The translations under genes were made by a program, and so were the position numbers. From Fructilactobacillus florum DSM 22689 = JCM 16035 (GTDB lineage Bacteria; Bacillota; Bacilli; Lactobacillales; Lactobacillaceae), in NCBI RefSeq assembly GCF_001436645.1, contig NZ_AYZI01000002.1, positions 62,001-126,000 of the forward strand: a DNA stretch of 64,000 nucleotides. Direction: 5' to 3'. Shown in pieces: positions 18,337 through 29,877 of this stretch. Position 1 is the first letter of the stretch; each line of letters starts with the position of its first letter. The notes under the pieces are model-generated. The model had not been told where the DNA came from and made no database searches. It saw nothing but the letters and a program-made list of their open reading frames with translations.

Positions 18337-18382
18337 GGTTGTCTTGGGGGTAAAAATCGGTTAGACTGATGGTATTCAAATA

Positions 18383-18454
18383 AAAGTTGGGGTGCCACGA
18401 GCTGAGATTATACCCATTGAACCTGATATAGTTCGCACTATCGCAGGAAACTTT
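18383..18454 (+). promoter_or_regulatory. TPP (THI box) riboswitch aptamer
   Basis: The thi-box blocks are all present: GGGGTGCC, GCTGAGAT-ATACCC, GAACCTGATATAGTT and CGCAGGAAA. Helix P1 is closed by AAAGTT (18383-18388) with AACTTT (18449-18454). It precedes tenA-thiD-thiE-thiM, whose products make the ligand thiamine diphosphate. Confidence 0.95.
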
Positions 18455-18499
18455 CTTTAATTAGCCAATAATTCTGACTAGCTTTTGTCATCTTTATTA

Positions 18500-26794: not shown

Positions 26795-27020
26795 AACAAA
26801 AACGAAGCTCAGTCAAGTATTTTGTTCGTGATTCCCAGAGAGTTCTAGCTTGGTGCAATAGAATGTTTTGCGACAAAAGAAAATCAACTGTAAGTTGCAA
26901 TTGCGAAAGGTTTAATAGTGATTGCTGGGATTGCCCATTATCGCAAACGAGTATCGTTATTGAACTGTACTTAGAGCCGTTTTCTAAAGGAAACGGAAAG
27001 ATGGGTGGTAACACGTGTGA
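26795..27020 (+). promoter_or_regulatory. T-box riboswitch, isoleucine specifier likely
   Basis: Stem I is clear. CAGT pairs with ACTG, and an internal loop has AGTA on the left and GAAA-ATC-A on the right. TTTTGTTCG pairs with CGACAAAA, and AGAGAG (26837-26842) is followed by GGTG in the apical part. The specifier reads ATC (26883-26885, Ile). Stem III is CCGTTT/AAACGG. The T-box core at 27002-27015 is TGGGTGGTAACACG, with AAC in place of the usual ACC. TGGT fits a tRNA with discriminator A. Uncharged tRNA would favour antitermination. Confidence 0.88.
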
Positions 27021-27021
27021 G

Positions 27022-27064
27022 AACGTCCCTGATTGTGTCATTGACACAGTTAGGGACGTTTTTT
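27022..27064 (+). terminator. First T-box terminator
   Basis: AACGTCCCT/AGGGACGTT with an inner TGTGTC/GACACA helix and a T-run, directly after the first T-box core. Confidence 0.9.
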
Positions 27065-27242: not shown

Positions 27243-28616
27243 ATGAAGCAGGAAACAAAAAATGCACGACTTACCTGGAAACAGCATCTTGTTTTAGCTT
27301 CACTGTTGTTTGGACTGTTTTTCGGAGCTGGTAATCTGATTTTTCCAATCCATTTAGGTCAAATTGCTGGACCAAATTGGTTTCCGGCGGCCATTGGTTT
27401 CTTATTATCAGCCATCTTGCTACCATTGTTTTCAATTTTTGCACTCAGTCTCACTAAGAGCAGTAGCATGTACGAACTGGTTTTGCCGGTGGGTCGCATC
27501 TTTTCACTGTTATTTTTAATGGCGGCCCACGGTTCGATGGGATTGCTAATTGGGTCTCCGCGGCTTGCCACGGTAACTTTTACCATGGGGGTGCAGCCGT
27601 TTGTTCCTAAAACGTGGCTTCCGATAGCGTTGTTTTTGTTTTCTGGATGTTTCTTTGCGTTAATCATTGCCTTAGCATATCGACAGACCAGTATCATTAA
27701 AAGTGTTGGTCAAATTCTAAATCCGTTATTTGTTACATTACTGATTCTGTTATTTTTTGTAGCTTTCATTATCAATGGTGACTTGACCAAACTACCCTTG
27801 GTTTCTCAACCGGGACAGGGAACGCCGTCTCTAATTAGTGGATTCTTGGAAGGTTATAATACCATGGACGCTCTAGCGGGACTGGGATTTGGGGTGACTA
27901 TTATTGCGGCAATGCGCGTTTATTTGAAACAGAAACAGCCGCCTGCGCTTGAGGTTGTCAAAGTTGGAATGAGTGCAATGGGCTTTGAAGCATTGATTTA
28001 TGTAAGTTTAATTGCCCTGGGAGCCTTAAGTTTAAGCTATGGAAAGGTTAGTCCTGATGGGGGAACCGCCTTTACGCAAATTATGCAGCATTACACTGGT
28101 TTTTTGGGAGCTGCTCTGTTAGCTGCCCTGACCTTTTTAGCTTGTTTGACGACCGCCGTAGGAGTATTGACTTCCTTTGCTCAGGATTTAGGCAATCGCT
28201 TTCCTAACATCGGTTATCACAAATTTTTGCTAGGGGCTAATTTGATTGCCTTTATAATTGCAAACTTTGGTTTGGAACAGATTATTGCTTTTTCAGCCCC
28301 CATCCTCAGTTTGCTCTATCCGATCGCAATTACGGTAATCTTGTTAGGGCTTTTGAATCGCTGGATTGGTCAGAACGTGGTTTTCTATCGAGTGACGGTA
28401 ACTTTAGTGATGGGACCGGCTTGTCTGGATTTCTTTCACACCTTACCCCCGGTTTTACATCAGTTTAAGTTGGTGCAATCATTGGATAGGTGGAGTTTAC
28501 TCCACATTCCATGGTTTAGTATTGGACTTGATTTCATTCCCTTCATGGTGGGCGGGCTAGCGCTGAGTGCCCTAATTGTCGTGGGACAACATTGCCTTGC
28601 TAACCAGCACAATTAA
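27243..28616 (+). CDS. brnQ: Branched-chain amino acid carrier BrnQ
   Basis: A protein of 457 aa with 12 membrane helices. The N-terminal LLFGLFFGAGNLIFPIHLGQ is the signature of the LIVCS (BrnQ) family, which imports Ile, Leu and Val with sodium or protons. The LSYGKVSPDGGTAFTQIMQHY and TTAVGVLTSFAQDL blocks are also typical. AAAGGAG precedes the ATG at 27243. The T-box leader with an apparent Ile specifier predicts induction when charged tRNA-Ile is scarce. Confidence 0.93.
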   Translation: MKQETKNARLTWKQHLVLASLLFGLFFGAGNLIFPIHLGQIAGPNWFPAAIGFLLSAILLPLFSIFALSLTKSSSMYELVLPVGRIFSLLFLMAAHGSMGLLIGSPRLATVTFTMGVQPFVPKTWLPIALFLFSGCFFALIIALAYRQTSIIKSVGQILNPLFVTLLILLFFVAFIINGDLTKLPLVSQPGQGTPSLISGFLEGYNTMDALAGLGFGVTIIAAMRVYLKQKQPPALEVVKVGMSAMGFEALIYVSLIALGALSLSYGKVSPDGGTAFTQIMQHYTGFLGAALLAALTFLACLTTAVGVLTSFAQDLGNRFPNIGYHKFLLGANLIAFIIANFGLEQIIAFSAPILSLLYPIAITVILLGLLNRWIGQNVVFYRVTVTLVMGPACLDFFHTLPPVLHQFKLVQSLDRWSLLHIPWFSIGLDFIPFMVGGLALSALIVVGQHCLANQHN

Positions 28617-28632: not shown

Positions 28633-28660
28633 TTGACAATTAATTCGAACGATATATAAT
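28633..28660 (+). promoter_or_regulatory. Consensus promoter of the cysteine-leader transcript
   Basis: TTGACA (28633-28638) and TATAAT (28655-28660) with 16 nt between them. Transcription should begin near 28667, about 390 nt before the MetQ-like start codon. No terminator separates it from brnQ, so some read-through is possible. Confidence 0.85.
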
Positions 28661-28754
28661 ATTCACAACTATTAAATATTAATTAAGCTAACTAGGTTTT
28701 TATAACGATTATGACCATTAAGAACGGGAATTTGATTTGAAAAGAGGGTTTTCC

Positions 28755-28787
28755 ATGGCTTGTTGTTGTTCATCTTTTTTGAGTTAA
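28755..28787 (+). CDS. Leader mini-ORF 1, peptide MACCCSSFLS
   Basis: A ten-codon frame whose third to fifth codons are TGT TGT TGT (Cys-Cys-Cys). AAAGAGGG lies 6 nt before the ATG. The stop is followed after 1 nt by a region able to form several alternative stems, and a terminator begins 100 nt later. Runs of the regulatory amino acid near the start of a tiny ORF are the classic sign of a transcription-attenuation leader peptide. The natural reading is a sensor of charged tRNA-Cys. That it is translated is inferred. Confidence 0.7.
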   Translation: MACCCSSFLS

Positions 28788-28886
28788 GCATGAGAAATGC
28801 AGGGATGTTTTTCTCATGAATTAGTATTCTGAAGTTATGAGAAATTCATCAATGATCAACAGCGTAAGGGATGAGAAAAATTCCTT

Positions 28887-28924
28887 AAAAAAACCGTGAT
28901 CTAGGTGATAGAGCACGGTTTTTT
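28887..28924 (+). terminator. Attenuator terminator in the cysteine leader
   Basis: AAAAAACCGTG pairs with CACGGTTTTTT, with an inner TCT/AGA, then a T-run. It lies between mini-ORF 1 and mini-ORF 2, so the downstream genes need read-through. Confidence 0.85.
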
Positions 28925-28948
28925 GCTACCGATGAGAAGGAGCTTCTT

Positions 28949-29026
28949 GTGAATCAACTTTTAGTGGCACTATTTGGTAAATATCGTGGTGGACGCTCCT
29001 GTTGTGGCGACAATTTATGTAATTAG
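28949..29026 (+). CDS. Leader mini-ORF 2, 25-residue Cys-rich peptide
   Basis: GTG start 6 nt after a near-perfect AAGGAG, 25 codons. It begins with a hydrophobic NQLLVALFGKY and ends RGGRSCCGDNLCN, with Cys at positions 18, 19 and 24. It stops 29 nt before the MetQ-like gene. The Ser-Cys-Cys codons overlap CTCCTGTTGT, which can pair with the ribosome binding site of that gene (see hairpin entry). I infer a second leader peptide that acts at the level of translation. Alternatively it is a small Cys-rich functional peptide. I do not recognise it from any named family. Confidence 0.72.
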   Translation: MNQLLVALFGKYRGGRSCCGDNLCN

Positions 29027-29045
29027 CAAGTTGACAACGTAGGAG
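28996..29045 (+). promoter_or_regulatory. Hairpin hiding the MetQ-like Shine-Dalgarno
   Basis: CTCCT-GTTGT (28996-29005) pairs with ACAAC-gt-AGGAG (29034-29045): ten base pairs with a 2-nt bulge. The right arm contains the AGGAG used to start the gene at 29056. The left arm is the Ser-Cys-Cys codon stretch of mini-ORF 2. A ribosome held at those Cys codons would open the hairpin and free the start site, as in erm-type translational attenuators. Confidence 0.6.
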
Positions 29046-29055
29046 GATTGCAATC

Positions 29056-29877
29056 ATGAAAAAGAAGTTTATTTATTTAGCATTACTAGCAGCACTTGGA
29101 ATCGGATTTATCTATACGTTTGTGTTAAAACCACAGCAGTCCGAAACCAACACCATTCGGTTGGCTTCCTCGCCAGGACCGTACAGTGATTTATTTTTAA
29201 ATGGAATCAAGCCAATTTTGGAAAAAGAAGGATACAAAGTAAAGAATCAATCCTTTAGTGATTTGTCATTGGCGGATGTGGCGATTAATAATGGGGAAGC
29301 TGATCTTAATGTCGACCAGCACACTGCTTATATGAAGAATTTTAATCAGGAAAAGCACGCTAATTTGGTCGCACTAACTAAAATTCCAACGGTTCCAACT
29401 GGAATTTATCCGGCTCGAAAGCAACAACTGCGAGCAGTAGCTAAGGGAGATTCGGTTGCAATTCCAAATGACCCTTCTAACATGGCTCGTGCCTATAATG
29501 TGATGGTCAAGGCGGGATGGATTACCTTAAAACCGGGCGTTAATCCAATCAAAGCGACTAGTAAGGATATTGCTACGAACAAGTATGATTTAAAAATTCA
29601 AGAGATGCAGGACGTTCAAATCCCACGTTCTCGTCAAGATTTTGATTACGTGATCTTGCCAGGATCAACGGCATATCCAGCCAAGATTTCAACTAAGACA
29701 ATGTTGTTACCAGAAAACATTAAACCTGACTATTATTTAGTGGCGGCTATTAATAAGCAGGATCAAAATAAGAAGTGGGCTAAAGCAGTTCGGAAAGCCT
29801 ACCATTCTAAGGAATTTAAACAATATTTAGCAAAGCATAATCGAGATAGTTTTTGGAAGGTACCTAAAGAAGCGTGA
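29056..29877 (+). CDS. MetQ/NlpA-like substrate-binding protein, no lipobox
   Basis: A protein of 273 aa of the MetQ (NLPA) family, which binds methionine or related amino acids for ABC import. Family blocks: IRLASSPGPYSDLF, VDQHTAYMKNFN, VAIPNDPSNMARAYNVM and DFDYVILPGSTAYPA. The N-terminal helix (about 5-23) lacks the lipobox Cys; indeed the whole protein has no Cys. It is therefore probably anchored by an uncleaved signal helix. No MetN ATPase or MetI permease is adjacent, so it must use a system elsewhere. The Cys-coding leader points to cysteine, cystine or a related sulfur compound as ligand, by inference. Confidence 0.8.
   Translation: MKKKFIYLALLAALGIGFIYTFVLKPQQSETNTIRLASSPGPYSDLFLNGIKPILEKEGYKVKNQSFSDLSLADVAINNGEADLNVDQHTAYMKNFNQEKHANLVALTKIPTVPTGIYPARKQQLRAVAKGDSVAIPNDPSNMARAYNVMVKAGWITLKPGVNPIKATSKDIATNKYDLKIQEMQDVQIPRSRQDFDYVILPGSTAYPAKISTKTMLLPENIKPDYYLVAAINKQDQNKKWAKAVRKAYHSKEFKQYLAKHNRDSFWKVPKEA

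What the first reader, a model, noticed from the sequence alone, without database searches (positions are those of the whole stretch)
28949..29058. Second Cys-rich mini-ORF whose Cys codons can sequester the Shine-Dalgarno of the MetQ-like gene
A 25-codon ORF with an excellent AAGGAG site ends RSCCGDNLCN. The mRNA for Ser-Cys-Cys (CTCCTGTTGT, 28996-29005) can pair with ACAAC-gt-AGGAG (29034-29045), the ribosome site of the next gene. A ribosome stalled at the Cys pair would open the hairpin, an erm-like translational attenuator sensing tRNA-Cys. I know of no named family for it.
Basis: partly seen in the sequence, partly recalled or inferred. Interest (0 to 1): 0.85.

Follow-up and report, generated by a model that had tools for sequence, protein, structure and literature searches.

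The report
Two-peptide cysteine switch before transporter genes
Before a transporter gene, some lactic acid bacteria carry two tiny genes in a row that probably let translating ribosomes gauge cysteine supply, and the second one makes a conserved 18-residue peptide that matched no protein family we searched.

Summary
The mini-ORF (28949-29026, GTG start) and its Cys-codon/Shine-Dalgarno complementarity are real, but on the window alone that hairpin is no better than chance (duplex shuffle p 0.21; fold z -0.7). Comparison shows that it is ORF2 of a two-ORF leader. ORF1 (28755-28787, MACCCSSFLS) and a terminator (28887-28924) form a Cys-codon transcription attenuator whose pairings 1:2, 2:3 and 3:4 covary across species, while control pairings 1:3 and 2:4 do not. 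ORF2 recurs in 7 of 10 genomes of the genus and 3 of 387 others of the family; in those three the leader precedes an L-cystine-transporter-like gene. ORF2 encodes a conserved peptide, MNxxLVxLxGK[YFH]RGGx[SAT]C, kept through synonymous changes. The Cys-Cys pair is unique to the window. Footprint folding suggests that a ribosome at codons 13-18 opens the transporter's SD: 0 of 200 shuffles over seven loci, but 17 of 200 without one locus and 15 of 200 within the genus. Verdict: a two-layer cysteine leader, new variant of a known kind; the translational layer is plausible, not proven.

The parts
28633..28660 (+). Likely promoter: TTGACA (28633-28638), 16 bases, TATAAT (28655-28660)
   Evidence: Read from the sequence; coordinates. 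No promoter scan was run.
28755..28787 (+). ORF1, leader peptide MACCCSSFLS with three Cys codons (28761-28769); ribosome site AGAGGG at 28743-28748
   Evidence: poly-Cys counterpart in the 10 other leaders aligned (two to four Cys codons)
28788..28797 (+). Segment 1, directly behind the ORF1 stop; pairs with segment 2
   Evidence: 1:2 own-arm p < 5e-5 over nine loci; window alone shuffle p 0.053; coordinates
28804..28818 (+). Segment 2; pairs with 1 or with 3
   Evidence: 2:3 own-arm p 0.0024; window alone p 0.007; coordinates
28837..28858 (+). Segment 3; pairs with 2, or with 4 as antiterminator
   Evidence: 3:4 own-arm p 0.044; window alone p 0.18; coordinates
28887..28924 (+). Intrinsic terminator; segment 4 is 28897-28908 in its 5' arm and loop
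   Evidence: 28888-28925: -17.0 kcal/mol, z -6.8
28936..28942 (+). Shine-Dalgarno site of ORF2, GAAGGAG
28949..29026 (+). ORF2, VNQLLVALFGKYRGGRSCCGDNLCN (GTG start); conserved part is codons 1-18, Cys-18 at 29000-29002
28996..29005 (+). 5' arm of the proposed SD hairpin, in the Ser-Cys-Cys codons
   Evidence: not significant in the window alone
29034..29045 (+). 3' arm, ACAACgtAGGAG, including the SD of the transporter gene
29056..29877 (+). Regulated gene: NlpA/MetQ-family substrate-binding protein, 273 aa
   Evidence: PF03180, E 3.1e-54; below the NCBIfam cut-offs of the MetQ models

Best explanation
A two-layer cysteine-responsive leader. Layer 1 (well supported by comparison): ribosomes translate poly-Cys ORF1 while RNA polymerase copies the leader. 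If charged tRNA-Cys is scarce, the ribosome stalls at the first Cys codons, segment 1 behind the stop codon pairs with 2, segment 3 is free to pair with 4, the terminator is disrupted and transcription goes on. If cysteine is plentiful, the ribosome reaches the stop codon and covers segment 1, 2 pairs with 3, and the terminator forms. Layer 2 (inferred): on read-through transcripts ORF2 is translated; a ribosome that pauses in its conserved RGGx(S/A/T)C end, through the nascent peptide and/or slow Cys decoding, holds open the region that otherwise pairs at or beside the SD of the transporter gene, so the transporter is made mainly while ORF2 ribosomes pause. Shown by computation: anatomy, recurrence, covariation of layer 1, peptide-level selection on ORF2. 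Inferred: translation of both ORFs, any arrest, the cysteine signal for ORF2, and the direction of both switches.
For: Same order ORF1-terminator-ORF2-transporter gene in 10 loci. Covariation of 1:2, 2:3 and 3:4 but not of controls 1:3 and 2:4; RNAalifold: 17 of 30 pairs with double changes; leader 28758-28925 z -6.7. More 1:2 pairing with the ribosome at the first Cys codon than at the stop in 9 of 13 loci. Downstream gene related to L-cystine transporters in G134. Peptide-level selection on ORF2. Own-arm preference of the ORF2-end/SD pairing and SD opening by a ribosome at codons 14-18 beyond shuffled spacers.
Against: No expression or ribosome data. Window hairpin alone not significant. G006 changes in the wrong direction and G226 hardly changes. 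The SD-opening signal rests largely on G134: 17 of 200 shuffles reach it without that locus and 15 of 200 within the genus. The second choice of loci gives p 0.053, and an unplanned combination, codons 1-9 with the SD region, scored as well (p 0.0058; 20 combinations per set). F. sanfranciscensis, which lacks ORF2, has an SD that costs 3.0 kcal/mol to open, within the range of the others. 3:4 is not significant by shuffling in the window, G226 or G134; 1:2 does not rise at the first Cys codon in G002, G006, G134 and G080.
Confidence: 0.55

Rival explanations
1. Only ORF1 regulates. ORF2 encodes a small functional peptide (for example one acting on cystine uptake or thiol/metal handling) that is simply co-expressed with the transporter.
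For: Peptide conserved through synonymous changes; SD opening is inconsistent across loci.
Against: The same peptide stands before two unrelated transporter types, NlpA/MetQ-family and SDF symporter; its end tends to pair with the SD region; it sits between terminator and gene in all 10 loci.
Confidence: 0.2
2. ORF2 only couples translation: ribosomes finishing it unfold the spacer or re-initiate at the transporter gene, without sensing cysteine.
For: Stop-to-start gaps of 29-71 nt; SD opening whenever a ribosome is at about codons 13-18.
Against: Does not explain the conserved peptide or the invariant Cys at codon 18.
Confidence: 0.13
3. ORF2 is a simple tRNA-Cys counter: only the Cys codon and the hairpin matter, the peptide does not.
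For: Cys-18 invariant in 10 of 10 loci; hairpin tendency.
Against: A single Cys in 9 of 10 loci; strong selection on the rest of the peptide.
Confidence: 0.08

Closest known systems
Cys-run leader ORFs of actinobacterial cys operons (PMC1262725, passages read; mycobacterial poly-Cys leader ORFs of Canestrari et al. 2020 seen only as a reference entry in PMC13236596)
   Same: Short upstream ORF with a run of Cys codons before sulfur genes, read as cysteine-responsive attenuation
   Different: The passages say those lack conserved terminator hairpins; here there is an intrinsic terminator, three covarying alternative pairings and a second conserved ORF
uORFC-8-2 motif before cysS in Rhodobacterales (PMC8632094, passages read)
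   Same: Cys codons in a uORF followed by an intrinsic terminator
   Different: Other gene, other bacteria, Cys codons at positions 14-15, one ORF only
erm-type translational attenuators, including ermB with two leader peptides (PMC8274638, seen in the search listing; the rest recalled)
   Same: Leader ORF whose stalled ribosome is thought to open a hairpin that hides the SD; two leader peptides in one leader
   Different: Antibiotic as the signal there; here the proposed signal is cysteine and the first ORF acts on transcription
Leader-peptide attenuators predicted in Firmicutes for hisS/hisZ (PMC2965389, passages read)
   Same: Codon-run leader peptide with terminator in Firmicutes
   Different: Histidine, one ORF, other genes
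RAPP/RGPP-type bacterial arrest peptides (PMC12992588, PMC10987492, search listing only)
   Same: Conserved Arg-Gly-containing C-terminal end in an upstream ORF
   Different: No Pro-Pro here; those are linked to protein localization. The RGG resemblance is a lead only

Membership tests
Leader-peptide transcription attenuator (trp/his type), ORF1 | Short ORF with tandem codons of the regulating amino acid | tested here: met
   CCC in the window; two to four Cys codons in 13 of 13 leaders
Leader-peptide transcription attenuator (trp/his type), ORF1 | Intrinsic terminator between leader ORF and gene | tested here: met
   28887-28924
Leader-peptide transcription attenuator (trp/his type), ORF1 | Mutually exclusive antiterminator pairing | tested here: met
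   1:2, 2:3 and 3:4 covary, controls do not; 3:4 is the weakest, p 0.044
Leader-peptide transcription attenuator (trp/his type), ORF1 | Gene belongs to the pathway of that amino acid | tested here: inconclusive
   L-cystine-transporter-like gene in G134, same family in G226; substrate of the window's MetQ-like protein unknown
Leader-peptide transcription attenuator (trp/his type), ORF1 | Read-through changes with the amino acid in vivo | not testable with these tools
   Needs experiment
erm-type translational attenuator, ORF2 | SD of the gene is hidden in a hairpin that a ribosome at a set place in the leader ORF opens | tested here: inconclusive
   0 of 200 over seven loci, 17 of 200 without G134, window alone p 0.22; 5 of 10 loci open by 1.6 kcal/mol or more relative to empty RNA
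erm-type translational attenuator, ORF2 | Ribosome arrests at a defined codon in response to an inducer | not testable with these tools
   Conserved peptide is suggestive only
T-box leader | Match to the T-box covariance model at the gathering score | tested here: not met
   13 bits against a gathering score of 93; none of 8 loci at gathering
uORFC-8-2 motif | Lies upstream of cysS, with Cys codons at positions 14-15 | tested here: not met
   Different genes; Cys codons at positions 3-5 in the window's ORF1

The most novel reading that the evidence does not exclude
ORF2 is the first of a new class of cysteine-sensing nascent-chain arrest peptide (MNxxLVxLxGK[YFH]RGGx[SAT]C), wired in series behind a Cys-codon transcription attenuator, so that one leader gates the same transporter gene twice, at transcription and at translation, with two different readings of cysteine (tRNA charging, and possibly the free amino acid).
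Probability: 0.33. Interest if true: 0.82.

Novelty: new variant of a known kind. Interest (0 to 1): 0.62.

Why it matters
Cys-codon attenuators are known, but a serial transcription-plus-translation gate with a conserved second peptide would be a new architecture. It offers a compact, testable candidate for a peptide that senses cysteine inside the ribosome, and a predicted control point for cystine uptake in lactic acid bacteria, including the sourdough genus Fructilactobacillus.

Tried and rejected
Rfam for the leader: no match at gathering in the window's leader or in 8 loci; permissive search gives only sub-threshold matches. NCBIfam and Pfam for ORF2: none. PHROGs and PADLOC were not searched. 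Wider searches for ORF2 at E <= 0.01: phylum 2 of 398 (own genome, and G675 at E 0.007 inside a 123-aa open frame, not inspected), order 2 of 395 (own genome and G226), genus of G134 2 of 12, genus of G226 1 of 75, relatives 9 of 298, all nine already known. In one search, at E <= 0.1, 19 of 397 genomes matched: 7 of the genus, 3 strong outside it, and 9 at E 0.018-0.092 that I did not count; I looked at three of those nine (L051-L053) and saw no such leader; six were not inspected. In one search, of 30 genomes hit, 8 are in the genus, 3 are strong outside it, 2 (G080, G106) are a one-ORF relative and 17 are weaker; I looked at seven of the 17 and saw no convincing poly-Cys leader with attenuator; ten were not inspected. 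Plasmid search with 401 bases of the G134 leader: no match.

Considered and dropped: T-box; whole-region fold energy as evidence for the ORF2 hairpin (z from -1.86 to +0.8 over 10 loci); no structure prediction was made for an 18-residue peptide.

Eight paper searches returned no description of this element in the titles and abstract beginnings listed or in the passages read; the library holds open-licence papers only, so this is not proof of absence.

Full report
Observation. The ORF at 28949-29026 has a GAAGGAG site at 28936-28942, a GTG start and the sequence VNQLLVALFGKYRGGRSCCGDNLCN. The complementarity claimed between 28996-29005 and 29034-29045 is exact apart from the two-base bulge. 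As a single-sequence claim it is weak: z -0.7 for 28980-29060, and 21% of 500 shuffled Cys-codon regions pair as well with the SD region. The SD belongs to an NlpA/MetQ-family gene at 29056-29877 (PF03180, E 3.1e-54) whose scores fall below the cut-offs of the NCBIfam MetQ models, so methionine as substrate is not established.

Where it lies. The window is part of a 1.35-Mb genome. Genome G008 of the same genus carries its copy of the gene on a contig of the same length and at the same place as a contig of Fructilactobacillus sanfranciscensis DSM 20451, so the genus is taken to be Fructilactobacillus.

Recurrence. All 10 genomes of the genus that were searched have a MetQ-family match; a close copy (79% identity or more, or the window itself) is in 8, G003 has one at 60% and G009 nothing above 31%. 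Seven of 10 carry ORF2 and eight of 10 the leader RNA; F. sanfranciscensis (G008) keeps ORF1 and the attenuator but not ORF2. Outside the genus, 3 of 387 family genomes have ORF2 at E < 1e-6: G134 and G157 of one genus and G226 of another. All three show the same order: MKMCCC-type ORF1, terminator, ORF2, then a gene of about 460 aa. The G226 and G134 proteins are of the SDF symporter family, and the G134 protein is 54% identical to Enterococcus faecium proteins annotated L-cystine transporter; the G157 protein was likened to them by eye only. Two further genomes (G080, G106) have an ORF1 with two Cys codons and a related attenuator before an M20 amidohydrolase gene, without an ORF2.

Layer 1. 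The ORF1-to-terminator RNA of 11 loci aligns, and RNAalifold finds the terminator and a 2:3 helix, with double changes at 17 of 30 pairs. I tested each alternative pairing by asking whether a species' own arms pair better than arms swapped among nine distinct loci: 1:2, p < 5e-5; 2:3, p 0.0024; 3:4, p 0.044; control pairings 1:3, p 0.44, and 2:4, p 0.49. The segments were chosen by eye from the alignment, so these values are not blind. Locus by locus the 3:4 pairing is not significant in the window (0.18), G226 (0.63) or G134 (0.50). In the window 28758-28925 has z -6.7. Footprint folding of RNA cut inside the terminator gives clearly more 1:2 pairing with the ribosome at the first Cys codon than at the stop in 9 of 13 loci, not in G002, G006, G134 and G080; 3:4 is higher at the first Cys codon in 7 of 13, lower in G005 and near zero in both states in the other five. 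This favours the logic: stall at Cys, antitermination; finish ORF1, termination. The direction is inferred.

Layer 2. ORF2 is under peptide-level selection: N2, L5, L8, G10, K11, R13, G14, G15 and C18 are invariant over 10 loci although G10, R13 and G15 each use four codons; the BLOSUM sum over seven distinct loci is 1406 against 392 +/- 173 for shuffled columns, 0 of 2000, and shifted frames score 194 and 334. Nine of 10 ORF2s hold a single Cys; the window's CGDNLCN tail occurs in none of the other nine. The end of ORF2 tends to pair with the stretch at or just before the SD, for example in G134 (-17.6 kcal/mol) and G157 (-15.7), each of which prefers its own partner. Over seven distinct loci 63 of 5040 permutations reach the observed own-arm sum; a second choice of seven gives p 0.053, and all ten loci, some closely related, p 0.0004. 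Narrowed to the SD itself (-24 to -4) the values are 0.032, 0.27 and 0.065. Of 20 arm combinations per set, one that I had not expected, codons 1-9 with the SD region, scored as well (p 0.0058, 0.0060 and 0.0008 in the three sets), so other pairings may exist or the test may be catching something else. Masking a ribosome footprint codon by codon shows the SD becoming cheaper to open once the ribosome is at about codon 12-13 in eight of 10 loci, not in G006 and G226. Compared with RNA without a ribosome, however, only five (window, G007, G005, G134, G157) open by 1.6 kcal/mol or more at the Cys codon, and G006 closes. Against shuffled spacers the summed drop over seven loci is 12.4 versus 3.0 +/- 2.7 kcal/mol, 0 of 200; without G134 17 of 200; within the genus 15 of 200; window alone p 0.22. 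F. sanfranciscensis, without ORF2, has an SD opening cost of 3.0 kcal/mol, within the range of the others, so it does not help.

Interpretation. The best account is a serial leader: Cys-codon transcription attenuation by ORF1, then a translational step at ORF2 in which a ribosome pausing in the RGGx(S/A/T)C end frees the transporter's SD. I give the two-layer account 0.55; the first layer taken alone I would rate about 0.85.

Known relatives. Cys-run leader ORFs without conserved terminator hairpins were described before actinobacterial cys operons (PMC1262725, passages). A Cys-codon attenuator precedes cysS in Rhodobacterales (PMC8632094, passages). Mycobacterial poly-Cys leader ORFs are cited in PMC13236596 (passages; the original paper was not held). 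Leader-peptide attenuators in Firmicutes were predicted for hisS/hisZ (PMC2965389, passages). Two leader peptides are reported for ermB (PMC8274638, listing). Arrest peptides with RAPP/RGPP-like ends are in the listing. None of the passages or listings seen describes this two-ORF leader.

Noticed in passing
window 26796-27033: T-box leader (110.6 bits) upstream of a BrnQ-type branched-chain amino acid carrier gene, 27243-28616.
   Followed up: no
window 18378-18466: TPP riboswitch (65.1 bits).
   Followed up: no
window 29056-29877: The MetQ-like protein has no Cys near its N-terminus (no lipobox by eye), so it may be membrane-anchored rather than a lipoprotein; the next gene is on the other strand and no ABC permease or ATPase gene follows it directly.
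   Followed up: no
L071 and L072, reverse strand from about 1719: The M20 amidohydrolase gene behind the one-ORF leader appears as two separate open pieces in both loci: a broken gene or sequencing errors.
   Followed up: partly
L010 and L033: Near relatives of the MetQ-like gene without this leader (G003, Liquorilactobacillus sicerae) lie directly behind what reads by eye as an amidohydrolase-type gene.
   Followed up: no
L088, reverse strand near 1500: Weak model hit (E 0.07) with a TTG-started CCCCMS mini-ORF beside what looks by eye like a tRNA gene; probably chance.
   Followed up: no
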